Origin: Hallerella succinigenes
GTDB taxonomy: Bacteria; Fibrobacterota; Fibrobacteria; Fibrobacterales; Fibrobacteraceae
NCBI RefSeq assembly: GCF_002797675.1
Contig: NZ_PGEX01000001.1
Coordinates: 248,001 to 312,000 of the forward strand
Length of the DNA: 64,000 bases
Direction of reading: 5' to 3'
Shown here piece after piece: positions 6,101 through 52,379 of the stretch. Every line of letters begins with the position of its first letter. The first letter of the stretch is position 1. The notes under the pieces were generated by a model. It had not been told where the DNA came from and searched no databases. It was given only the letters and a program-made list of their open reading frames with translations. Made by a program: the position numbers and the translations under genes.

Positions 6101-9100
6101 CATTTATCTGTTCTACTTCGGCATGAAAATGTTCAACATAGACCAAATCCAGCTGTTTCCTGTGTCTCTTTATTGCCAGGCTAAACCGTTTGGGGGCATA
6201 GCCGTAGATTCTTTGCGTTCCCAAAACATCTGCATTCAGAGTCACCCCATTACGCAAATCCGTAGGCAAGTATTTTGCAGCAATATCCGTCCTCACAAGG
6301 TAATCTGGAACAGGGACATACCTATTTTTCCCGTTATCGTCAAAAGCCTCGGAAACAACCAAATTCGTGCCATCTTCAAAGGCTGGCACCATTTTTTTCA
6401 AAGAAATCTTGAGTTCGGTGGATGCTGTCTTTTTATGGGAACCTTCTACTTCGTAAGCATCAATCACAACCCTGTATTTTCCAGGTTCGACTGCGAACCC
6501 CTCCGCATCCTTTGCATCCCATAAAACCGAATAAGCGGTCCGTTTAGCATTCGCCCTTGTGAAGACGGAATCCTGTAGAGTTCTAACCACATTCCCTTCC
6601 GAATCCGTTATTTTGATGGACACATAGGCATCCCTGTACAGGATTCCATAAGGGATATTCAAAGATCCAAGATCATATAATTTCACCTCCTCCGTATCCG
6701 TAGTAGTATCCTCATCAACAGTATCGGAATTGAGCGAATCCGCAGAATTGTCGATAAGGTAGAACTCCGAAAGTTCAGGAAGCGATATTTCCATTTCCGG
6801 CAAAACAAGAGTCACCACGGTATCGATTAAAGTGGCAAACGGATTGTCGAGGCTATTCTCGACCACTTCCGCATGGAGAGTGACGCTACCTGATGGCGGA
6901 TACGTGTTCGTGGAAGAGATTCCATTCCAAACATAATTCAGTCCATAGCTTTTCGGGTTGACAGACCAGCCTGTATTCCAGGGATTTACGGAAGAGGACT
7001 GTTCTAGGTCCATAAAAGCAAATCCACTTTCCTTGTGAGAACCGAAATAGACAGGAATATTCGCATCGCTTATTGAACCATTTCCGGCAATACGAAATGC
7101 CCCAGAGGATTGCATCGTTAAATGTCCACTTGCACCAAAAAGAGTCATCAACTTGTCAGTATATGCAGGGAACTGCCAAATCGGATAACTAGACAAATAG
7201 GAGCCAGCAGCGCTTTGAACATAGGAATAATCGGCAATTTCATCCGAGACACTGCAACCCAAATCCATGTTGCCCAAACCATCCGAAGAAAGGCAAGTTT
7301 CTCCAAATGTATTTGAGTCAAAGGAAACCTTTATCGAATCCGAACTTTCAAGTCCTTTCCATTTCAGGTGATACGCGCCCTCTTTTTCGTAAAACCACAC
7401 TCCCCTTGACAAGGCCGTATCGGCAGGTTCACCATAAAACGGATTTGCAAAGACCCGTTCCATGGATTTGTCAAAAAGTCCGACACCCTTGGAATCCTCA
7501 GCATACAAATGCAACAGGTAATTATGATTGAAATTTCCTTCTAGGCGTAAGGACATTGAAAGAGAATCCTTGCCCACTTCCATAACCGCGGAAGAAATAT
7601 CAAAGACAACCTTTGGGGATTCTTCATTGACGGAAACCTCATCAACCGTCACCAAAGTAGAATCCGATTGCCATTCGCAGGTCTCACAGGAGCGGGTAGA
7701 AAGTTCGATATAGACTTTCGATTCGGAAAATCCCACATTGTGCAGGTAGCCCAAAACCCCTTCGGTACTCTGCGCCGTTTTGGATATGTAAGAACTATCT
7801 TCAGAACGGTTCGAGGCGACCACCGCAATATTGTCGGTCAGCCATTCATCGGAATTCTCGTAACGATAGCGAAGCCTGTAGACGGTCGTATTTTCGGCGC
7901 TTGCTGAAGCAGGCGGTGCAATTCCCACGATAGGGATGTATTCAGCCGTGAGAAATTCCCTGTCTTCTGCCGGAGATACGATTTCGGGGTAACGGTTCCC
8001 CACATGGAACAGATCCGTGCGGACACTTGAGTTCCCGGCGGCATCTAGGCATACGGCCTCGAGATAGCGTTTGCCATTTCGTTCTCCCACGGCAACGGCA
8101 GGAATATCAAACCTGACCGTATCGGTTTTTAGGATACCCTCGCTGACATTACGCCATAAGCCGTCAGCATCGCCTCCAAGAACGTGGTAATGGCAGCGCA
8201 TCCCCGTGCGGTTTGTCGCGATGTCATCCGATTCCGAAACATTGAGAGTCGCAGCGAAATCCTTCACCGAATCAGGATAAACAAGGCGGGAACTGACAAG
8301 GCTCACGATTTTCGGGGCGGTGCGGTCAATGCGGATTTTCTTTGTGTAATCGTATGCCTTTGTATTCTTCGCTTCATCACGAACGCTCGCCCTGAGGATA
8401 TAATCGCCATCTTGCAAGCGCATTCCCGACATTTCCGTCCATGTTCCATACCCCACATTACTTGCGTCCCTGACCCATACGGAATCACCAGCCCGGTCAA
8501 CTTTGGATACGTCATCCACATGCGCAAAGTCCCAACCGATAGTCACTGCGGTAGAATCGCGACCACCCAGAGGTTCCTTTACCAAATATTCCACTTGCAA
8601 CAGGCTATCTTCTGAAACATATTCCAAGTCCTGATTGCGGGAAGGACGTGAAAAACCTGCATACTTTTCAACTCCGAAGGAATCCACCGGAGACCCTCCG
8701 ACCTTTTCAAAATTCAGTTCGGGAGCGGTCCTGTCGATACGAAATTCGATTGTCTTTTCTGTGCGATTGAAACTATAATCGCCGAGGGTGCTCCAGTCAG
8801 AATCCCTGTCGTTTCCGCCAGCAATTTTTGTGACAAGACCCGTGGCGAAATCATACGCCTCCAGATTTGGGGCGGCATAGTCGATGGCAAGAGCCTTCAC
8901 CCGATAAAGCCCGTCTTGCAGGTTTTCCCTATTCGGAACTTTATCCCATGCCACGGCGAAATCTTTAGAAGTGACATCATATAACGAGGGCATCGACGTA
9001 ATAAGAGAAAATCCGTTGCCGTTGCTTTTCTCCAATTGCCACCGCATGGCCCGGATGTCAGGAATGGTAGAATCGCCCCAGGCAAAGCGGGCGATAAATA

Positions 9101-42417: not shown

Positions 42418-43899
42418 GTTGACCCTTAAAAAGTCACTTCGCGAGCGCAGGATAAGGAGGTTCGCCGTTTTTATTCACCCCTTCCCGGCAAAGGAAGCAA
42501 CAGTATAGCCATTCCAACAGGACAAAAAAGCGCCTCATGGCCCTCTTGAAGTTGAACGCCGCTGCTGCAAGCTTTGCATTGAGCATGTCGCCAAAGATTC
42601 CCTTGTAGAAATTTCTGCCCATACGGTGGTCGCTTTTCAGGTGGCCGTTGATAGGCTCGATGCCTGCCCTCTTGCAAAAAAGCTTGTGAGCCTTTTCCTT
42701 CTGGTAGTAAGTCGCGTTTTTCTTCGGGACGTCCGGTATCACGATCTTTGTCGTTCCGGATTCCTTTTGTCCGCGGTAGCCTCGGTCGCATGCGGCCTGG
42801 CTCGGCCTGAATCCAAGCATTTGTTCAACATGGTCAAGCGTATCGTCTATCGTATGTCCGTCATACTCGTCCCGGAACGAGACCGCGCCGACAATGATGC
42901 CGCTGTAGCTCCGGGCGATTGACACCTTGTTGCCGAACTCGTATTTCTTGTGTTCCTTGCCCTTGCCGATGCATTTTACTTCGGGTTCGTGAAGCGAATA
43001 GACCTTGTCCTTGTCGCATTTCTTCTGTGCCAGAACTTTTTTGAAAAGCTCGATTTTTTCTTTGTACGTGTTCAACAAGTTCTTGCTGGCGAGATTTCGC
43101 TCTAATTCACGGACGAGCCGTCCCGCGATTGTCTTCAGCCTGCGATCTGCCTTGTGAGCCTTCTTGCCGTTCTTCGGGTGATTGCGGAAACGCTGGTCAC
43201 GATGGACCTTCTTCAAGGTTCTCTTGTAGGACTGTCTTTGCGGAAGATCATGCTCTTCCACGATCCTCTGTACCTGTTCTATTATCTTGTTCGCAAGTTT
43301 GGCGTCTGTAGGGAACGTGATGTTCTTTTCCTGCACGGTCGTGTCAAGAAAGACCGTGCCGCATCCTGTCGGTCCTTGTTTATCGTGGTCATCGTTGACG
43401 AGGATACTTTCCTTGAGGATCATGTCCATGCCCGCTTCGCCAATCATGTGCCGGAAGTGAACAAGTTCGCTCGGGTCGCAGGGTTGCTCCGTCGAGAAGA
43501 ACCGTTCTCCGCAAAAATACTGGTAATAGGCGTTTTCCTGAAACTGCTCCACGACGGACTCGTCCGATACGTTGCGGATGTGCTTCAGGATGATGAGCCC
43601 GGTCATGAGACGGATCGGCTTGTTCGGCGCACCCATTTTGTCGTCAAACCGTTTCGAAAACTCGGTCTCGAACTTGTTCCAGTCAATCTTGTTCGCGAGA
43701 ACGTAGAGGGAATGCTTGTGGTTCAACTGCTCCTCAAGGGAACAGAAAAGGCTTGTCTGTGCGTGGGATTTTGGCGGTCTGTACATAAAAAATTGCAAGG
43801 TTTTCAATCATATTTTAGAAAACCTTGCAATATTTTCACAGGGTAGAAATCAGTTTTTCCCAATAGTTATGCGGGCTGGGCGGGATTTTAAGGGACGAC
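42418..43899 (-). mobile_element. IS5/IS1182-like insertion sequence, 1,482 bp
   Basis: Bounded by imperfect terminal inverted repeats: left end GTTGACCCTTAAAA and right end (read inward) GTCGTCCCTTAAAA, 12 of 14 matching. The flanks are direct repeats TACATA at 42412-42417 and 43900-43905; the uninterrupted copy 1 gene has a single TACATA at the matching site. One transposase gene fills the element. The 6-bp target duplication is measured from this sequence. Confidence 0.92.
42434..43807 (-). CDS. DDE transposase of the IS
   Basis: 457 residues. DUF772-type N-terminal domain (IRLMTGLIILKHIRNVSDES, HFRHMIGEAGMDMI), then a DDE catalytic domain: Asp in GTVFLDTTVQEKNITFPTDA, Asp in ACDRGYRGQ and Glu in RAGIEPINGHLKSDHRMG. 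A Lys/Arg-rich insert lies between the first and second Asp. Typical of the IS5 superfamily (IS1182-like). The reading frame is intact, so the element could still move. It ends 16 bases from the left end of the element. Confidence 0.93.
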   Translation of the reverse strand: MKTLQFFMYRPPKSHAQTSLFCSLEEQLNHKHSLYVLANKIDWNKFETEFSKRFDDKMGAPNKPIRLMTGLIILKHIRNVSDESVVEQFQENAYYQYFCGERFFSTEQPCDPSELVHFRHMIGEAGMDMILKESILVNDDHDKQGPTGCGTVFLDTTVQEKNITFPTDAKLANKIIEQVQRIVEEHDLPQRQSYKRTLKKVHRDQRFRNHPKNGKKAHKADRRLKTIAGRLVRELERNLASKNLLNTYKEKIELFKKVLAQKKCDKDKVYSLHEPEVKCIGKGKEHKKYEFGNKVSIARSYSGIIVGAVSFRDEYDGHTIDDTLDHVEQMLGFRPSQAACDRGYRGQKESGTTKIVIPDVPKKNATYYQKEKAHKLFCKRAGIEPINGHLKSDHRMGRNFYKGIFGDMLNAKLAAAAFNFKRAMRRFFVLLEWLYCCFLCREGVNKNGEPPYPALAK

Positions 43900-44256
43900 T
43901 ACATAGGCATCGAACTCCTGGTTGTTGTAAAATAAACCCTTGGTTTTGAGCTCGCCACGGTCCATCGCCTCGAAAAGTTCGTCAAATTTACGGTCGTGGT
44001 CAAGCAGATGCTCGTCATGACCGGTCAAGCGGCAGTCCTGTTCCAAATCTTTTGCTTCTACATTTGAAAGCCGGTTGACGAGGCCTCCGTTACCCATCAT
44101 AAGGTGACGCAGTTGCACGAATGCCCGCATGATGGCGATGTTGACCTTGATTGCAGACTCACTTTTTAGAACCGAAGATAGCATCGCTACGCCTTGTTCG
44201 GTGAAAGCTAAAGAACGGTATTTTGTGTGCTTTCCCTTTAAATTTTGCCCCTTTTT

Positions 44257-44285
44257 TTCTAAGGTCGCATTTTGCGACCTTAGAA
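44257..44285. repeat. Perfect 12-bp-arm palindrome inside ORF6N copy 2
   Basis: TTCTAAGGTCGC (44257-44268), loop ATTTT, GCGACCTTAGAA (44274-44285). It encodes LLRSQNATLE on the minus strand. Copies 1 and 3 have a palindrome with a five-base loop at the same codons but different arm bases. Confidence 0.9.
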
Positions 44286-44565
44286 GTTGCGATTCCTCTA
44301 AAGAGAGATGTATGCAAAAATCTTCGGGAAAACGCTCAATATTGCGCTTTACCTGCTCATTTATACGCTTCGTTTCCACCCCGTAAAGCGTCGCCAAATC
44401 GCGGTCAAGCAGCACCTGCTTGCCACGAACTATTTGAATCATTTTTTCGACACCCGACTCCACGATCGGGTTTGGTACGGAATCATCCGTTTTTTCGGTC
44501 TTTTTAGCCATCTTCTACTCCAATTCGCCTACAAGCAAAAAAGACGGGGAAACGTGTTCTCGATG

Positions 44566-44573
44566 CAAATATA
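44566..44573 (-). promoter_or_regulatory. TAnnTTTG-type promoter of ORF6N copy 2
   Basis: TATATTTG on the minus strand, in a leader nearly identical to that of copy 1, with the same spacing to the ATG. Confidence 0.6.
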
Positions 44574-44591
44574 CGTTCCTCGTATGTCACA

Positions 44592-45557
44592 TTAATCTGC
44601 GTTGTCATCTTGTAATACCTGACTTTTTTTTCCCTGAATCTTCTGCGATTCCTTCAACACTTCGTCCAACGTGAAATCTTCCTGCGTAAAGAAGAACGTG
44701 TTCTTGCCCAAATCCTTGAGCGAAGCCCCGAAGTGGTAGGCCGTATCGTCTATGAACAAGAATCGGTCGTGCATTCCGTAACTAGGCAGAACTTGCATCG
44801 GGCTGTCGGGATATTGCTCGTTGTAAGTTGCCAGATCTAACTCGAGAACCTTGCTCTTGTCGTAGGTGTAAATAGTCACGGAAACGCCTTTTTCCCGCTT
44901 GAGCATCATCGTCAAGGTTTTCTCGTTTACATATCTATCGACCAGCACAATTCTCTTTTTGGCTTGGCGAATGAGGTTGCAGACAAATACATAGGCATCG
45001 AACTCCTGGTTGTTATAAAATAAACCCTTAGATTTAAGCTCGCCACGGTCCATCGCCTCGAAAAGAGAATCTATTTTGTGGTCATGATCTAAAAGACGGG
45101 CGTCTTGTTCCAAATCTTTTGCTTCGACATTAGAAAGGCGATTGACGATTCCGCCATTTTGATATAAATACTGCCGCATGGCGACAAACGCATCCATGAT
45201 TGCGATGGATACATTCACGGCAACCTTGCTTTTCAGGACGGATGAAAGCATGGCAAAGCCCTGTTCCGTAAAAACATAGGGCTTAAACCTGTCGCCGCCC
45301 CAACTTGAAATCACATTTTGTGATTTCAAGTTTTCTTGTTCGTTTTTTTCCAACCGGAAACAATATCTTTCCGGAAAGCGCTCGATGTTCCGTTTGACAG
45401 CCTGATTTATCGCTCTAGTTTCAACGCCATACAACGTTGCAATATCGCGGTCAAGCAGCACCTGCTTGCCACGAACAATTTGAATCATTTTTTCGACACC
45501 CGACTCCATGAGCGGGTTAGGTGCGAAATCATCCGTTTTTTCGGTCTTTCTAGCCAT
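44592..45557 (-). CDS. ORF6N-domain protein with PLD-like C-terminal domain, copy 3
   Basis: 321 residues; first of the tandem set in transcription order. Starts MARKTEKTDDFAPNPLMESG. The ORF6N part has IVRGKQVLLDRDIATLYGVE and INQAVKRNIERFPE; the variable segment reads LEKNEQENLKSQNVISSWGG, then FKPYVFTEQGFAMLSS. The C-terminal half is almost identical to copies 1 and 2 (DRFLFIDDTAYHFGASLKDL). TATAGGAG precedes the ATG, directly after a large inverted repeat that could end upstream transcription. Conserved ends with a divergent middle suggest exchange of a recognition segment. Confidence 0.88.
   Translation of the reverse strand: MARKTEKTDDFAPNPLMESGVEKMIQIVRGKQVLLDRDIATLYGVETRAINQAVKRNIERFPERYCFRLEKNEQENLKSQNVISSWGGDRFKPYVFTEQGFAMLSSVLKSKVAVNVSIAIMDAFVAMRQYLYQNGGIVNRLSNVEAKDLEQDARLLDHDHKIDSLFEAMDRGELKSKGLFYNNQEFDAYVFVCNLIRQAKKRIVLVDRYVNEKTLTMMLKREKGVSVTIYTYDKSKVLELDLATYNEQYPDSPMQVLPSYGMHDRFLFIDDTAYHFGASLKDLGKNTFFFTQEDFTLDEVLKESQKIQGKKSQVLQDDNAD
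45302..45332. repeat. Perfect 13-bp-arm palindrome inside ORF6N copy 3
   Basis: AACTTGAAATCAC (45302-45314), loop ATTTT, GTGATTTCAAGTT (45320-45332). Same position and loop as in copy 2; about half of the paired arm positions differ, yet every pair is kept. Encodes NLKSQNVIS. Confidence 0.9.
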
Positions 45558-45644: not shown

Positions 45645-45802
45645 CTAGTCGAACTTGGCTTGCAAGCGGATATTCGCTGCCGGTGCCTGTTATGGTGTAA
45701 TATACAAAAAGCTGAGTAAAAAAAGGCAAGGGAACTCCCTTTTTGTCACCTTTTGACATTCCAAAAATCTATATTTCAAGGCAAATAGAGTTTTCTCTTG
45801 TT

Positions 45803-45843
45803 CTCTACTTGAAACTTCGACACTTTCATACACAGGGAATAAG
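45803..45843. repeat. 41-bp direct repeat, first copy (second at 46082-46122)
   Basis: The two stretches match at 38 of 41 positions, centred on GAAACTTCGACACTTTCATA, 279 bases apart. Both lie in the non-coding stretch between the ORF6N and methyltransferase genes. On the minus strand both could encode VYESVEVS, so they may be relics of the same small gene. Confidence 0.75.
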
Positions 45844-46316
45844 ACGGACGCTCACGTCTGCGACCGGCGCAAGCCTGTCGCATCGTTTTGGTACATGCAT
45901 ATTTGATAAATCTGCCTGTAGGCAAACGGCCATTTTGGGGCGTGAGTTGTTTGCGTTTATTTGTGTAGGGCAGTCGAAGGCCTCAGGTAGGTAAATGCAT
46001 TCAACTCCACGCCTTTTTTATTTCCCAAAAAGACTGAAGAAATGCAGAACGGGGGTAGACTCGCTGAGTTTTGCTCTTGTCCTCTAACTGAAACTTCGAC
46101 ACTTTCATACACAAGGAATAAGGCAATGACTCGCCACAGCCCGTGTATTGCATGGGCGTAGTGTACCCTGGGCGTATTGTATCCGCTCGGGTTTTTGCGG
46201 GTGTATTGTATTCGTTTGAAAATGTCGCGCTTTTGGGCGAGGAGTGAGTCGGCTCCCCGCCGTTTCTTTTTGCCTGCACCCCGGCCAAGCGAATCGGCCA
46301 GAACCGCTCCCGCGAG
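45844..46316. other. Intergenic stretch without a convincing gene
   Basis: Contains the second 41-bp repeat copy, short G/T-rich repeats (GTGTATTGTAT near 46205, GTGTATTGCATGG near 46151) and no frame with a start signal and protein-like composition that I trust. It looks like the scar of a rearranged accessory junction upstream of the restriction-modification operon. Confidence 0.5.
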
Positions 46317-46332
46317 AGTGAACTCGTTCACT
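46317..46332. promoter_or_regulatory. Palindrome just upstream of the methyltransferase gene (possible operator)
   Basis: AGTGAAC-TC-GTTCACT, perfect seven-base arms, ending 16 bases before the ATG and right before the GGAG site. Its position would allow autoregulation of the restriction-modification operon by a repressor or by the methyltransferase. Confidence 0.5.
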
Positions 46333-46348
46333 TTCAACACGGAGCGAT

Positions 46349-47407
46349 ATGGCCCAGACTCGACAGAAGAAGAATGTAATCAGGGTTTTTGAAGGCTTTG
46401 CTGGTTATGGCGGAGCATCCTTTGGATTGAAAAGAGCAAAAAGAGCTTTGACGAATTTTGATTACACTATTGTTGGTTATTCAGAGTTCGATAAATACGC
46501 TTCGAAGTTATTTGACGCAAATCATCGTGACGCGAAAGGAAACCCTATAAAGAATTGGGGCGACATTACAAAGATTGATCCAAATGATTTGCCAGATTTT
46601 GATTTGTTTACGGGAGGATTTCCCTGCCAGCCATTCTCTTCCGCAGGAATGCAAATGGGGACCGAAGACCCATATGGCCGAGGGGCAATGCTTGGGCATA
46701 TCATTCGAATATGTCGAGTAAAAAAGCCGAAGTACATCCTTTTGGAAAATGTTAAAGGCTTCACGTCTGGAAAGTTTAAGCCCATCCATGATCAACTTGT
46801 AAAAGACTTGATTGAAATGGGATATGGCACGACGGAAGAAAATACTTTAGCGAGAGTTGTTCTGAACTCGAAGGATTATGGGGTTCCGCAAAATAGAGAG
46901 CGCCTTTGGATGTTCGCTCAATTAGGTGGCTTGCCTAAAAATTTTGAAATGAAGCCGCCTGAAATCCAAAGTGATTTAAAAATGGCCGATTTCTTGGACA
47001 ACACTCCTGAAAAATATCTCTATCTGTCTGATGAACAAATTGCTCACTTGAAGGTGAAACATCATATCGATTCTTTTGTCGTCAAAACGCCGTTGTGTTT
47101 TGATGTGTATAACAAGAAAATCAAAAAAGATGGCTATAGCATAACAATCACCCAGCCGGAACATAATAGTCTTCGTGTTATTGAGCCTCCTAAGAAATTT
47201 GGTAAAGATAAGGGCAAAGAAATTGTTCGAAAGATGTCTGTTCATGAGCAATTTCGTCTGATGGGTTTTGATATATCTCGCGATAAAAAGAATTGCGAAA
47301 TCAACTTCGACGGACAATCGTATTCCCAGTTGTCTAAACGAGCAGGAAATGGTTGGGATGTTAATGTTGTCGGAATTCTTTTAGCTCATATATGGAGGCA
47401 ACTATGA
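46349..47407 (+). CDS. DNA (cytosine-5) methyltransferase of a LlaJI-like restriction-modification system
   Basis: 352 residues. SAM loop FEGFAGYGGASFGLKRA, catalytic Cys93 in GGFPCQPFSSAG (motif IV), ENV at 133-135 (motif VI), QNRERLW at 181-187 (motif VIII) and the C-terminal motif X KRAGNGWDVNVVG. The target-recognition region between ~200 and 300 is short. It protects host DNA at the site cut by the downstream nuclease. More AT-rich than the core genes, suggesting transfer. Its stop overlaps the next start (ATGA). LlaJI itself has two methyltransferases; only one is visible here. Confidence 0.93.
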   Translation: MAQTRQKKNVIRVFEGFAGYGGASFGLKRAKRALTNFDYTIVGYSEFDKYASKLFDANHRDAKGNPIKNWGDITKIDPNDLPDFDLFTGGFPCQPFSSAGMQMGTEDPYGRGAMLGHIIRICRVKKPKYILLENVKGFTSGKFKPIHDQLVKDLIEMGYGTTEENTLARVVLNSKDYGVPQNRERLWMFAQLGGLPKNFEMKPPEIQSDLKMADFLDNTPEKYLYLSDEQIAHLKVKHHIDSFVVKTPLCFDVYNKKIKKDGYSITITQPEHNSLRVIEPPKKFGKDKGKEIVRKMSVHEQFRLMGFDISRDKKNCEINFDGQSYSQLSKRAGNGWDVNVVGILLAHIWRQL

Positions 47408-49140
47408 GACTTGACCAAGGTTCTTTGATTTTTTCTCCACAAAATGGAGAATGTCCTTCATGGGAAACAGCTCTTGGTCAATCACGAGAACCTAGAGATG
47501 ATATGCCTCCGTATTATTTCAAGGCGGAAGGTTATGAGAATATGTTAAAGGGAATGTACTTTAATTCAGTCCCTTTGGCTAAAACATCTTGCGTTTTAGG
47601 TAAGAAGAAATTATTCGTCACTGCAAGCGAATCGTATTTAAATCCCGAATATCAGGAAATACAATTAGCATCAAAATTTGATAATATTATTGTTCATTTT
47701 CAAAACAATACTAAAATTTTTCGGAATACTCCAATCATTCTATTGTTAACGAAAATACAAGACGTTAACAAATCTCATTACAGGAGACGATCAATCAAAT
47801 ATTCTCCTCATACAACTTATGATACAATAAAAAACCAAGAATCCTTTGAAGAAATTCAAAGACATTATCAAGATCGTTTGATGTGTTATGGCTTTTTCAT
47901 CGAGCATTTTGATACACTTCATTTATATTGTGTGAGCGTTGATGATAATAGTTATACTTATTCTAATTTGAGCTTACCTCAAACGGAATGGACAGATTGG
48001 GCTGATTGGGAATTAAAAGAACGCAAAAAAAATCAGAACGAAATACTTGCAAATTCGTCACAAGAAGATTCTATTGTCGAACCACCATCACAAAATCAGT
48101 CCTTCACCCCCTCCCAAATCATCTACTACGGTGTTCCGGGGTGCGGCAAGAGCAACAAGATCCGGGAGCAACTGAAGGACGTTCCTGAGAAGAACAAGGT
48201 TCGTGTCGTGTTTCACCCGGAATACTGCAATGCGGATTTCGTGGGGCAGATTTATCCTTACGTAAAGCCGGATAACGGCGGTGTTGAATATCGCTTTAAA
48301 CCGGGTCCGTTTGCGGAAATCGTGCGTAGGGCCTATCGCAATCCTGCGGAGCCGTTCTTCTTGGTTATCGAGGAAATCAACCGCGGCAATGCGGCCGCTA
48401 TTTTTGGGGAAATGTTCCAGTTACTGGACCGTATACGCCCGGAAGATGGCCCTGAAGAACTCTCGGGTAACGTCTATGACACAGGTTGGAGTTCTTACGG
48501 AGTTACAAACATTGATGTGAACGCGTATGTTCGCCAGAAAAGTACGGATAATCCGGAAAAGATTGAATACGACGATTCCATCCCGTACGGCGACAAAATA
48601 AAGTTTATCAACAATACTGCTGTGCGCTTGCCGCCGAATCTTTCTATTTATGCAACAATGAACACAAATGACCAGAACGTGTTCACGATGGATAATGCGT
48701 TCCAGCGCCGTTTCAAGTCAAAGATGATTCGAAATGTTTTGGACGAAAATTCCGCCCAGTACAAGACCGAAATTGACGATACAGGCGTTTACTGGGGTGA
48801 TTTCCGTAAATGGATAAACGAAAAGATTCTATTGCCATAGACGGCTGTTTTGAAGGCTGATGACAAGTGTCTGGGCGGTTGGTTCATCACAGGCGAAAAA
48901 ATCGGCGGCGTGGACAAAATCAAGAAAGAAGACTTTGCGGAAAAGGTTCTCAAGTATCTGTGGGACGACGTTTTCAAGCGCAACAAGTCTGGCGAGATTT
49001 TCGTCAAGGATGATAAAGTCAACTCCCTTTCGGATTTGATAGACGCTTTTGAAACGTCCGTCGGATTTGAGTCCTTTGAAAAGATTTTCAAGATGAATGA
49101 CGTGGATAAGGCAAAGTTGCAAAAGCAGGCGAATACCTAA
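47404..49140 (+). pseudogene. McrB-like AAA+ restriction subunit, split by an in-frame amber codon
   Basis: Starts at the ATG after GGAGG. Residues 1-235 are a variable, probably DNA-sensing, N-terminal domain in AT-rich DNA. From ~236 the McrB-type AAA+ motor begins: Walker A GVPGCGKS (243-250), Walker B FFLVIEEINRGNAAAIFGEM, sensor NLSIYATMNTNDQNVFTMD and the Arg finger region FQRRFKSKM. At codon 479 (48838-48840) there is a TAG. The same frame then continues 99 codons (LKADDKCLGGWFITGEKIG, VLKYLWDDVFKRNKSG) with the normal C-terminal lid of this family and reaches a TAA directly before the nuclease gene. Without the TAG it would be a full 578-residue protein. Either a nonsense mutation or suppression is possible; the truncated protein loses the lid. 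Confidence 0.85.
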
Positions 49141-50559
49141 ATGACAGCACTTGCACAACATATCGCAGAACCCGCACCAAAGGCTTTCACGTCTTTTGCG
49201 GATTTTTGCGTGTATGATGCTTGGCGTTCAAGTGACGAAAAGAAGGACAAATCGTTTGTTGGGATAAAGATTGAGGATAACCGCCCCAAAATCTATTTCC
49301 CGATGGGGTATCGCGCATCAAAGCCACCCGAGGATGTTTGCAAGCGGGATTTCTACCAGCTTATTGCTGTATTGAACGATAAATCCCTGCAAAGCTATTT
49401 CTCCGAAGAAGACTTGAAAAAATTCCAACTGGATTTCCCGTTCTACGCGTATCTTTCGGTATTGCAGTACTATCTCGATTTCGGCTACTTTGTGGAATCC
49501 GAAACGATTTACAAGAAGGGTTTCTCCGGCAAAATCAGCTGGCCGCGAACAATTAAAAGAATTAAGCCGCAGGTTGTCAAAGACGAAGAAGGTCACGATC
49601 AAGTTGTATATCTAAACTTGATTACTCGCAATACGAGTTACCGCGAAGACAACCTGATAACGCTCGTCCACAAGTTTTGTGTTAAAGAGGCCGCTCAACT
49701 GATTGGTCCGCTTTACGGAATTTCAGAAGACGAAGTCGAAGAGCCGGAACTTTTGTTCGACTATGAACTATTTGCAGAAGTGATTCAGGATAAAATCACA
49801 GCGACTTTCAACGATAAACATTTGGAACTTTTTCATGCGATGCTGAAAATGGTTCGCTATTTAGGGAACAGGGATAATCGTGGCGAAGATGGTAGTGAAA
49901 ACGAGCCGTTATTCGGCGTAAATACCTTCGCCCCCGTGTGGGAAGCGATGGTGGATAAAATTTTCGGGAAGTTGCCGCAGGGTGTCGCCAAGGATAAATT
50001 TAATCCGCATTGTGAATGGGATCTGAGTTCTGGAGCCCGCGGATACGAAAATCCCACTTATGCAATGCGTCCCGATACGATTATGTGGGATGAGGAAGGC
50101 AATCGTCTTTATGTTCTGGATGCCAAGTATTATAAGTTTGGCGTGACTGGTTCTGCATCAGATTTACCGTCTTCGGGTTCGATTTGCAAGCAAATTGCTT
50201 ATGCGGAATATGTGGAAACACATTGGAAAGAAATTTTAGGCGTGGATTCTATCGTTCTGCCAAAGCCTATCTACAATGCGTTCCTACTGCCGTATTGTTT
50301 TGATGCCGACAACTCTCAATTACCGCCGGACGACGGCTTTGAAACGCGTCCTTGCAAGATGCGCTTTATAGGCTTTTGCCATGGGAACTGGAAGAATCTT
50401 GATGCAAGGCCGGGCGAAGTCGATTATCGTTCTTACCACCGAATCGCGGGAATTTTGCTGGATGTAAGGTCGGTGATGAAGAACTATGGAGCGTTTGGTG
50501 AGGCTCAAAAGACGTTGGCGACGTGTATTTTGAGGGAAAACTCGAATTGTTGTACATGA
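49141..50559 (+). CDS. LlaJI-type restriction endonuclease subunit
   Basis: 472 residues beginning immediately after the McrB-like frame (TAA-ATG). It follows the LlaJI R2 layout, equivalent to McrC: an N-terminal helical/beta domain and a C-terminal PD-(D/E)xK nuclease with RPDTIMWDEEG (Asp near 311), VLDAKYYKFG (Asp ~327 and Lys ~329) and the following SSGSICKQIAYAEYVE helix. Works with the AAA+ subunit, which translocates DNA. The ribosome binding site is weak, so reinitiation after the upstream stop is likely; a defective motor would leave the nuclease without its partner. Confidence 0.9.
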   Translation: MTALAQHIAEPAPKAFTSFADFCVYDAWRSSDEKKDKSFVGIKIEDNRPKIYFPMGYRASKPPEDVCKRDFYQLIAVLNDKSLQSYFSEEDLKKFQLDFPFYAYLSVLQYYLDFGYFVESETIYKKGFSGKISWPRTIKRIKPQVVKDEEGHDQVVYLNLITRNTSYREDNLITLVHKFCVKEAAQLIGPLYGISEDEVEEPELLFDYELFAEVIQDKITATFNDKHLELFHAMLKMVRYLGNRDNRGEDGSENEPLFGVNTFAPVWEAMVDKIFGKLPQGVAKDKFNPHCEWDLSSGARGYENPTYAMRPDTIMWDEEGNRLYVLDAKYYKFGVTGSASDLPSSGSICKQIAYAEYVETHWKEILGVDSIVLPKPIYNAFLLPYCFDADNSQLPPDDGFETRPCKMRFIGFCHGNWKNLDARPGEVDYRSYHRIAGILLDVRSVMKNYGAFGEAQKTLATCILRENSNCCT

Positions 50560-50575: not shown

Positions 50576-50888
50576 TTGCATCAATATTATTTTTCTAAAA
50601 ATGACTCCGATGCGGTTCATTCATGTAGCAAAGACTCATTTACAATTTTTGGTTGCTCCGAAGACGATTCTGCGATAAATATTCTTGAATGGCAGGCAAA
50701 CTATGCTGCCGCATGTTTCTTGATGCCACAAGAGGATGTTTCGCAGGCTTTTATTAAACGTTTTGCGTTTAAAGGGCTTTCCTCAGAAACCGCTAGAAAT
50801 GAAGCGCTGGGTGAATGCTCATATTTCTATGTTGGCGAAGCAATTTGATGTCGCCATAGAATATGGGAGCGATGTGGAATTCGCGTAG
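50576..50888 (+). pseudogene. ImmA/IrrE-type metallopeptidase relic
   Basis: The first frame has ILEWQANYAAACFLMPQEDV, the segment that follows the HExxH motif in ImmA/IrrE peptidases; a second frame continues MKRWVNAHISMLAKQFDVAI, the usual W-x-N-x-x-I-S-x-L-A-K-x-F-x-V end of that family. The HExxH part is missing and the frame shifts near 50800, so it is inactive. Such genes often pair with phage-type regulators in mobile islands. Confidence 0.7.
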
Positions 50889-51173
50889 ATGGAAATTTTT
50901 TATTCTATTTGTTAGAAATTAGCGAACAGCAAACGGTAAATGTATGAAACTAGACAAGTATGCTATTGTAGCCAAATTGGACGTGAGCATTCGTCTTATT
51001 CTCAGTGACTTTTGAAGTGGTGAATTTCTAGGTTTGAGAATAAATTACCACGCCATATTCGCAAAGGCCTGAAATATGCTTGGAAATACGGAAAAACGAG
51101 CTTTGCGGTCATTTGCTGACGGAGAAACGAAATACTATTTCACATCTCCTTAAAAATTATGTATGTTTAGAGC
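50889..51173. other. Non-coding stretch with short frames only
   Basis: Holds a 23-codon frame starting MKLDKYAIVAKLDVSIRLIL and then stops in all frames. I see no known domain. TATGTTTA, nine bases before the next ATG, resembles a weak TAnnTTTG element for the ATPase gene. Confidence 0.4.
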
Positions 51174-52379
51174 ATGATCAATCGCAAAATAGCCCCCTAT
51201 ATCCAGTCCCAGATGGCTGAATACCCTTCTGTCACCTTGTTCGGCCCGCGTCAATGCGGAAAAACGACGCTTGTTCGCGCCCTTTTCCCAAACTACGCAT
51301 ATGCGAACCTAGAAGATTTTGCCACCCGTGAATTGGCGTCGAAGGATCCCGACGAGTTTTTCACAAGGTTTCCCGCTCCGGTCATCATCGACGAAATTCA
51401 TCGGATCCCATCCCTGTTGGGGCAGGTTCAGGTGCGTATCGACCGAAACCCTCTCAAAGGGCAGTTTTTGCTTACGGGCAGCAACCAAATTTCGGTAAAA
51501 GCATCCGTAGCCCAGTCTCTAGCTGGCAGAACGTCCATTATCGACATGCTTCCTCTGTCCATCTCTGAAATAGAGTCGGCAGGGATTATGCTGGAGCGCG
51601 ACGATCAGATTATTGCTGGTGGAATGCCGTTCCTGTTTGCTGAAAGCGGACACGCTCCGTCCGATTACTACAGGAATTATGTGAACACCTACGTGGAAAG
51701 GGACATCGCGCAACAGGCGTCCGTTCGTGACCTATCCAAGTTTTTCAATTTCCTGAAACTGCTGGCAGGACGTACTGGGCAGTTGATGAACAGTGCAGCA
51801 ATCGGGGCCGAAGCGGGCGTTTCAGGTAAAACTATTTCTGCATGGCTTTCGCTTTTGGAAGCCTCGCATATTGTCTATGTCTTGAAGCCTTGGTTTACTT
51901 CTAGGACTAGCCAGGTTGTCAAAAGTCCCAAGGTTTATTTTTGTGATACGGGACTCGCCTGTTATTTGTTAGGGATAGAGACTCCAGTTCAACTGCAGCG
52001 AGATCCGATGCTAGGAAAGTTGTTCGAAAATCTTGTTTTGTTAGAAGCCCTGAAAAGCAGATTAAATAACGGCTTAGAGCCGAACCTGTATTTTTTCAGG
52101 AACAGCAATGGGCTGGAAGTGGACCTTATTCTTTCGCGCAAGCAAGGGCTCGATCTATTCGAAGTCAAAAGCGGCAAGGCTTTTGACCAGGATTTCAGCA
52201 AACCCATGAAAAGTTTTTCCGAGAAGTACGCAAAGCATCTTTCCCAAAATCCGCCGACAATCGTTTATAGCGGAGACGGCGCGGAATCGTTTATGGGAAC
52301 TCGCTATGAAAACTTCAAGTCTGTTGGGGGCTTGTTCTGCGAAAGAGAGGAAAAATTTAGGCTACAGTTTAAACACTGA
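51174..52379 (+). CDS. AAA ATPase of the DUF4143 group
   Basis: 401 residues. Walker A FGPRQCGKTTLVR (24-31) and Walker B VIIDEIHRIPSLLGQVQVRI, sensor FLLTGSNQIS. The middle has the winged-helix part (AAIGAEAGVSGKTISAWLSL, LLEASHIVYVLKPW) and the C-terminal DUF4143 nuclease-like domain LYFFRNSNGLEVDLILSRK, ending in LFEVKSGKAF. These ATPases are among the commonest accessory genes in anaerobic gut and rumen bacteria; function unknown. It closes the accessory island. Confidence 0.9.
   Translation: MINRKIAPYIQSQMAEYPSVTLFGPRQCGKTTLVRALFPNYAYANLEDFATRELASKDPDEFFTRFPAPVIIDEIHRIPSLLGQVQVRIDRNPLKGQFLLTGSNQISVKASVAQSLAGRTSIIDMLPLSISEIESAGIMLERDDQIIAGGMPFLFAESGHAPSDYYRNYVNTYVERDIAQQASVRDLSKFFNFLKLLAGRTGQLMNSAAIGAEAGVSGKTISAWLSLLEASHIVYVLKPWFTSRTSQVVKSPKVYFCDTGLACYLLGIETPVQLQRDPMLGKLFENLVLLEALKSRLNNGLEPNLYFFRNSNGLEVDLILSRKQGLDLFEVKSGKAFDQDFSKPMKSFSEKYAKHLSQNPPTIVYSGDGAESFMGTRYENFKSVGGLFCEREEKFRLQFKH

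What the first reader, a model, noticed from the sequence alone, without database searches (positions are those of the whole stretch)
46349..50559. LlaJI-like restriction operon with one methyltransferase and an amber codon in the AAA+ subunit
Described LlaJI systems carry two m5C methyltransferases, since the site is asymmetric; here only one is present. The McrB-like gene is interrupted by TAG at 48838-48840 with 99 further codons of the normal C-terminal lid in the same frame. Either the system has just been inactivated (methylation kept, cutting lost), or the stop is suppressed, or a two-part motor is made.
Basis: partly seen in the sequence, partly recalled or inferred. Interest (0 to 1): 0.56.

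Follow-up and report, generated by a model that had tools for sequence, protein, structure and literature searches.

The report
Truncated LlaJI-type operon behind shared RNA
A gut-bacterial DNA-cutting defence operon has very probably lost its cutting activity through one recent stop codon while keeping its protective methylase; having a single methylase is normal for its relatives, and the operon sits behind a conserved RNA element that also precedes many unrelated defence systems in the same bacterial family.

Summary
In detail: one m5C methyltransferase (M), an McrB-like AAA+ gene (R1) stopped by TAG at 48838-48840 with 99 conserved codons still in frame, and a LlaJI-family nuclease (R2). 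Two inferences change. (1) One methyltransferase is no defect: 38 of 50 comparable Fibrobacterota operons have exactly one m5C gene nearby, and a genome with an open version has no other. (2) The TAG is best read as a private, recent nonsense mutation: six of six closest motors have a sense codon there, the tail shows no decay (dN/dS 0.03-0.09), and none of 49 tRNAs reads stops. Expected state: methylation kept, cutting lost. Readthrough and sequencing artefact stay open. Around it are two less ordinary things. M plus the R1 N-terminal domain is largely exchanged as a block against motor plus R2. M stands behind a ~600-bp leader holding a covarying terminator RNA with a candidate antiterminator, not in Rfam; relatives of this RNA precede Type I, II and III systems and surface-protein genes, in 87 of 167 Fibrobacterota genomes. 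I rate the amber low, the leader high.

The parts
45745..46348 (+). Leader directly 5' of M, shared with other RM loci
   Evidence: Sharp 5' edge at 45742-45747 in ten relatives; full or partial copies before other MTase genes
45791..45843 (+). Repeat box 1 (53 nt; holds GAAACTTCGACACTTTCATACACA); promoter-like by position only
   Evidence: sigma-70 scan finds nothing
46070..46122 (+). Repeat box 2, 91% identical to box 1, 279 nt downstream
45830..46034 (+). Structured RNA element
   Evidence: z -5.57; 13 of 38 pairs covary, 0 of 500 shuffles on all five measures; no Rfam match
45845..45859 (+). 5' motif able to pair with the terminator 5' arm (candidate antiterminator)
45937..46019 (+). Long terminator-like hairpin ending in six T
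46305..46346 (+). Hairpin whose outer stem CGCTCC/GGAGCG covers the likely ribosome site of M
   Evidence: fold; alignment read by eye
46349..47407 (+). M: m5C DNA methyltransferase
   Evidence: PF00145; HhaI-like solved relatives
47404..48090 (+). R1 N-terminal domain (inferred site-recognition part); with M the exchangeable specificity block
48100..48840 (+). R1 AAA+ motor up to the TAG
48838..48840 (+). In-frame TAG (codon 483 counted from 47392)
48841..49140 (+). Conserved C-terminal ~100 codons of R1 cut off by the TAG, still under old constraint
49141..50559 (+). R2: LlaJI-family (McrC-like) nuclease, open
   Evidence: PF09563; PADLOC PDLC03549

Best explanation
A LlaJI-type (McrBC-like, Type II) restriction-modification operon of a Fibrobacter-like bacterium. 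M methylates the site; the R1 N-terminal domain reads the unmethylated site; the R1 AAA+ motor with the R2 nuclease cuts. One methyltransferase suffices, most simply because the site is palindromic (inferred). A single recent nonsense substitution in a variable loop removes the conserved C-terminal ~100 residues of R1, so the motor is expected not to work, and R2, which starts right after the original R1 stop, may be translated less. Result: restriction lost, modification kept. Expression of M is probably set by the leader: an RNA that either ends at a terminator or, by pairing of a 5' motif with the terminator's 5' arm, lets transcription continue, followed by a hairpin over M's start. Shown: gene identities, open relatives, constraint on the tail, the single-M rule, block exchange, the covarying terminator RNA. 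Inferred: loss of cutting, palindromic site, switching by the leader.
For: Gene families. Sense codon at the TAG in 6 of 6 closest motors, no stop in any of 57 open R1 motors (open partly by construction) nor in 8 of 8 relatives found by tblastn. Tail dN/dS 0.03-0.09 against six relatives. Tail present, 76-136 aa, in every aligned motor. No stop-reading tRNA among 49. One m5C gene in 38 of 50 loci; G063 has a single PF00145 match, the M of its open operon. Leader RNA.
Against: No protein, RNA or methylome data. A stop in a loop that tolerates many residues is also where readthrough would give a working protein. Intact tail with low dN/dS fits an artefact equally well. The fold of R1 could not be modelled (pLDDT 33), so the effect of truncation is argued from conservation alone. 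Antiterminator covariation is weak.
Confidence: 0.74

Rival explanations
1. The TAG is an assembly or base-calling error and the operon is intact.
For: Tail under unchanged constraint; the second McrB-like gene of the same genome is also interrupted, by a frame change, as assemblies with residual errors show; no second strain is held.
Against: Single-contig genome, 100% complete; the TAG is a substitution and not an indel; the neighbouring M and R2 are open.
Confidence: 0.14
2. The stop is read through at a useful level (by a near-cognate tRNA), giving little but working R1.
For: The position lies in a loop of variable residues and length, so any inserted residue should be tolerated; low R1 could suffice.
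Against: No stop-reading anticodon among 49 tRNA genes; no relative has a stop there; TAG is used as an ordinary stop (3 of 38 ORFs of 200 aa or more).
Confidence: 0.07
3. A two-part motor: R1 residues 1-482 plus a separate C-terminal piece restarted at TTG 48850.
For: An open frame of 96 aa starts 10 nt after the TAG.
Against: No ribosome site before the TTG (by eye); no split at this place in relatives.
Confidence: 0.02
4. A two-methyltransferase system that lost one methyltransferase.
For: Founding LlaJI has two (PMC1459862, abstract passages and sections 5 and 11 read); 9 of 50 related loci have two.
Against: Operons with a 93-96% identical single M and open R1/R2 occur in several genomes; the leader runs up to M's start without room for a lost gene.
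Confidence: 0.03

Closest known systems
LlaJI of Lactococcus lactis pNP40
   Same: R2 of the same Pfam family, McrB-like R1 with a divergent N-terminal half, m5C methylation, M genes before R genes (PMC1459862 sections 5 and 11 read)
   Different: One M instead of two; R1 truncated by TAG; a leader RNA family not known from LlaJI; site unknown
BsuMI of Bacillus subtilis and LlaI
   Same: McrB-like subunit with linked m5C MTases; B. subtilis is the one control genome of 14 that matches PF09563
   Different: Three-gene restriction cassettes with short McrB-like subunits (PMC1459862 section 5 read)
McrBC, Type IV
   Same: AAA+ motor and nuclease pair
   Different: McrBC cuts methylated DNA and has no MTase; here an M is part of the operon
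Transcription attenuators and terminator-type riboswitch leaders (recalled class)
   Same: Terminator hairpin with a complementary upstream motif, before a gene on the same strand
   Different: No Rfam match; one family before RM systems of several types and before surface-protein genes; signal unknown

Membership tests
LlaJI-type RM | R2 of family RE_LlaJI (PF09563) | tested here: met
   E 1e-25, over cut-off
LlaJI-type RM | McrB-like AAA+ R1 with divergent N-terminus | tested here: met
   N-terminus has no Pfam match
LlaJI-type RM | Linked m5C methyltransferase | tested here: met
LlaJI-type RM | Two m5C methyltransferases, as in founding LlaJI | tested here: not met
   One M; but 38 of 50 related loci also have one, so this marks a subtype
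LlaJI-type RM | Asymmetric recognition site | not testable with these tools
   No methylome
LlaJI-type RM | B3-like DNA-binding fold of the R1 N-terminus | tested here: inconclusive
   Model failed, pLDDT 33; B3 fold taken from PMC12707154 passage
LlaJI-type RM | Uninterrupted R1 | tested here: not met
   TAG at 48838
McrBC Type IV | No cognate methyltransferase | tested here: not met
   M overlaps R1
Terminator attenuator leader | Conserved, covarying terminator hairpin before a same-strand gene | tested here: met
Terminator attenuator leader | Mutually exclusive antiterminator | tested here: inconclusive
   Pairing conserved (97.8% of cells) and stable, covariation weak
Terminator attenuator leader | Regulated switching by a signal | not testable with these tools
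   Needs RNA experiments
Known Rfam family | Score at or above a gathering cut-off | tested here: not met

The most novel reading that the evidence does not exclude
Fibrobacteraceae use one family of attenuator RNA as a common control element before otherwise unrelated RM systems (LlaJI-type and other m5C, EcoRI-type, Tsp45I-type, Type I HsdM, Type III-like MTases) and before surface-protein genes, so that defence and surface form one regulon; and the same leader upstream with the conserved motor downstream serve as homology arms through which LlaJI-type operons exchange their M plus R1 N-terminal specificity block.
Probability: 0.55. Interest if true: 0.82.

Novelty: new variant of a known kind. 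Interest (0 to 1): 0.6.

Why it matters
The amber by itself is an ordinary loss of restriction with protection kept, the order of loss that does not harm the host. What matters is around it: single-methyltransferase LlaJI-type systems are the rule in a phylum; their specificity half and cutting half behave as interchangeable blocks; and an undescribed terminator RNA family seems to put many unrelated defence systems under one kind of control, which makes the question of how bacteria co-ordinate a changing set of RM systems testable with leader-reporter experiments.

Tried and rejected
Suppressor tRNA: 49 tRNA matches in the own genome, anticodons read, none for TAG, TAA or TGA; an unusual tRNA missed by that search is not excluded. 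Structure: AlphaFold on 9 sequences failed (pLDDT 33); no fold search was run. Rfam: nothing at gathering, six chance-level hits at E up to 5. Sigma-70 scan of the leader: none, so 'promoter-like' for the 53-nt repeat is positional only. Viral contigs: no relative of R1, no exact match of an RNA core pattern. Plasmids: no leader match. A weak model hit at window 50901-51008 minus (27.6 bits) was not pursued. The RNA model was trained almost only on LlaJI-locus copies, so its score order favours RM genes; and MTase genes with no model hit beside them exist (own genome 1169438, 1178350, 1829194, 1833485, 2319713, 2823412). A leader as a coding region was considered and dropped because copies differ by many indels; no formal coding test was made.
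Full report
What is there. M (46349-47407), R1 (47404 or 47392 to 48840) and R2 (49141-50559) are as described, and the frame after the TAG (48838-48840) carries the missing end of the same R1 profile. M matches the m5C family nearly end to end. R1 keeps GVPGCGKS, EEINRGN and MNTNDQN before the stop (aligned with solved McrB chains). The window is bases 248001-312000 of a 3,127,022-base single-contig genome; the named records nearest by R2 are Fibrobacter.

The stop. Of nine related loci from genome contigs, eight cover R1 and none has a stop at this place. In a wider set from unnamed Fibrobacterota genomes, 57 of 57 R1 motors that form one open frame have a residue or a gap at that column, and the six closest all have a glutamine codon. 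Loci with R1 split, very short or missing were not in that alignment, so the 57 are open partly by construction. Among the 62 loci other than the window, the other clearly split R1 is L147, two overlapping frames. The column lies in a loop that varies in length and sequence just before the motif DK..G..F, invariant in alignments A1 and A2. Changes after the stop give dN/dS of 0.03-0.09 against six relatives, not higher than before the stop. So the lesion is too young for decay, or is not real. The 49 tRNA matches show no stop-reading anticodon. Three of 38 window ORFs of 200 aa or more end in TAG. The TTG 10 nt after the stop has no visible ribosome site. R2 begins with ATG directly behind the original TAA, so an early stop may also lower its translation (inference).

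One methyltransferase. I collected 62 other R2 loci with their neighbourhoods and scored M, R1 and R2 with profiles built from them. Twelve were dropped before counting: seven with R1 absent, split or short and five with too little upstream sequence. Of the 50 left, 38 have one m5C gene within 2.6 kb upstream of R1 on the same strand, nine have two, three none. Ten gap genes from nine of these loci were scanned with Pfam: one, in L173, is an extra N6/N4 MTase. A PF01555 search of 38 genomes shows no such gene beside the closest operons covered (G122 was not among the 38); N6/N4 genes do lie beside L173 and in the cluster of L137. Some loci are near relatives of each other and not independent. 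G063, 100% complete, has a single PF00145 match, the M of its own operon with open R1 and R2 (L132). Published LlaJI has two MTases for an asymmetric site (PMC1459862: passages and sections 5 and 11 read; PMC12707154: passages read). BanLI is a described one-MTase system taken to have lost its partner, with weak restriction (PMC3990576: passages read); here the one-gene form is common and open.

Two exchangeable blocks. For 42 loci (861 pairs) similarity of M and motor is unrelated (Spearman 0.08), motor and R2 go together (0.83), M and the R1 N-terminal domain go together in part (0.43). Of 66 pairs with motor similarity above 0.8, 51 have M under 0.45 and N-terminal similarity under 0.2; of 40 pairs with N-terminal similarity above 0.55, none has M under 0.45. 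Against a strict block: of 79 pairs with similar M but different motors, 40 have N-terminal similarity under 0.2 and 21 above 0.55, so M and N-terminus do not always move together. In the window the switch point shows as a DNA breakpoint between about 48030 and 48103 and a G+C step from 0.335 to 0.469. Loci with unrelated M (L131, L133) share both the leader and the motor side with the window, which are natural homology arms (inference). The listings (open PMC library) and the passages read show no description of this.

The leader. The ~600 bp before M recur, over all or part of their length, before other DNA methyltransferase genes: in the same genome at 214473-215168 before the MTase at 215189, and before PF01555 genes elsewhere. 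Window 45830-46034 (45835-46030 folded) folds far better than shuffles (-78.4 against -55.4 kcal/mol, z -5.57). On 36 copies the RNAalifold structure has 38 pairs, 13 with changes on both sides; none of 500 shuffles reaches any of the five measures; as the tool warns, relatedness alone can give this for some measures. Thirty-four copies not used for the model give a like terminator hairpin by themselves: 23 pairs, 8 with compensatory changes, 97.8% paired. A 5' motif (45845-45859) can pair with the terminator's 5' arm: mean -18.2 against -7.1 (sd 3.2) kcal/mol for other stretches in 36 copies. This pairing is conserved (97.8% of cells; slid versions 26-51%), but covariation is weak: two pairs changed on both sides, which 93 of 500 shuffles reach, and 382 of 500 reach its number of pair types. 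In 34 non-training copies the best pairing of the arm lies in the top 5% of shuffles in 21. Just before M's ATG the stem CGCUCC/GGAGCG covers the likely ribosome site and several rows keep it with changed bases (by eye); the second half of the leader as a whole folds only slightly better than shuffles (z -1.64).

What else carries it. In 12 genomes the model finds 79 copies, 1 to 12 per genome. I looked at 50 of the 79: eight LlaJI-type loci and 42 others. Of the 42, 15 have an RM or defence gene as first or second gene on the same strand (m5C MTase, EcoRI MTase, Tsp45I REase with N4/N6 MTase, PF01555 MTases, HsdM, D12 MTase, a SNF2-type helicase, a UvrD-PDDEXK gene), 12 a surface or repeat protein (Fib_succ_major, GLUG, collagen/transglutaminase), 15 something else or nothing recognised; for L206 and L208 this rests on PF01555 coordinates and a layout like L205 and L207. 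In the own genome six of seven copies precede RM or defence genes; the seventh precedes an EndoU nuclease gene. Twenty more copies, chosen by me from the top of the phylum list in genomes not yet looked at, gave 17 readable loci: 16 have an RM gene first and one (L247) an Eco57I-type MTase second; three were cut by contig ends. At E 1e-6, 87 of 167 Fibrobacterota genomes carry it, in four genera, all in one family. Nothing matched in Rfam, in viral contigs with an exact core pattern or in plasmids; outside the phylum it was not otherwise searched. Listings for Fibrobacter with small RNA, structured RNA or riboswitch, and for RM with leader RNA, show nothing on it (one passage of PMC2864571 read).

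How it most likely works. The leader sets how much M message is made and translated; R1 and R2 follow by overlap and adjacency. Here R1 ends early, so methylation goes on and cutting stops. The leader's terminator would hold transcription down, and pairing of the 5' motif would let it through; what shifts the balance is unknown, and no part of this has been measured.

Noticed in passing
window 45745-46348, RNA 45830-46034 (+); copies in L202-L261: Multi-copy structured terminator RNA with candidate antiterminator before RM systems of several types and before surface-protein genes in Fibrobacteraceae, not in Rfam.
   Followed up: yes
L065 (own genome 1816000-1835500), 6566-7520 minus: The second McrB-like motor gene of this genome is also interrupted: its Walker A part lies in another frame than the rest. 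It sits with two m5C MTase genes and a long R2-like gene.
   Followed up: partly
L147 (G141:C9:4257-18291), 7392-8851: Another relative with R1 split into two overlapping frames and no m5C gene found upstream by my profiles.
   Followed up: no
window 50576-50888: Fragments with weak match to capP (E 2.7e-4), looking like a frame-broken ImmA/IrrE-type protease remnant (name recalled).
   Followed up: no
window 43888-45557 minus: Two similar ORF6N-domain genes side by side (PADLOC PDC-S05), transcribed away from the leader; the start of the nearer one is also conserved next to the leader in L180, L183, L175 and L135.
   Followed up: partly
window 51174-52379: AAA_14/DUF4143 ATPase (PADLOC PDC-S01); a gene of the same domains lies between R1 and R2 in L153.
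   Followed up: no
window 50901-51008 minus: Weak match to the leader RNA model (27.6 bits).
   Followed up: no
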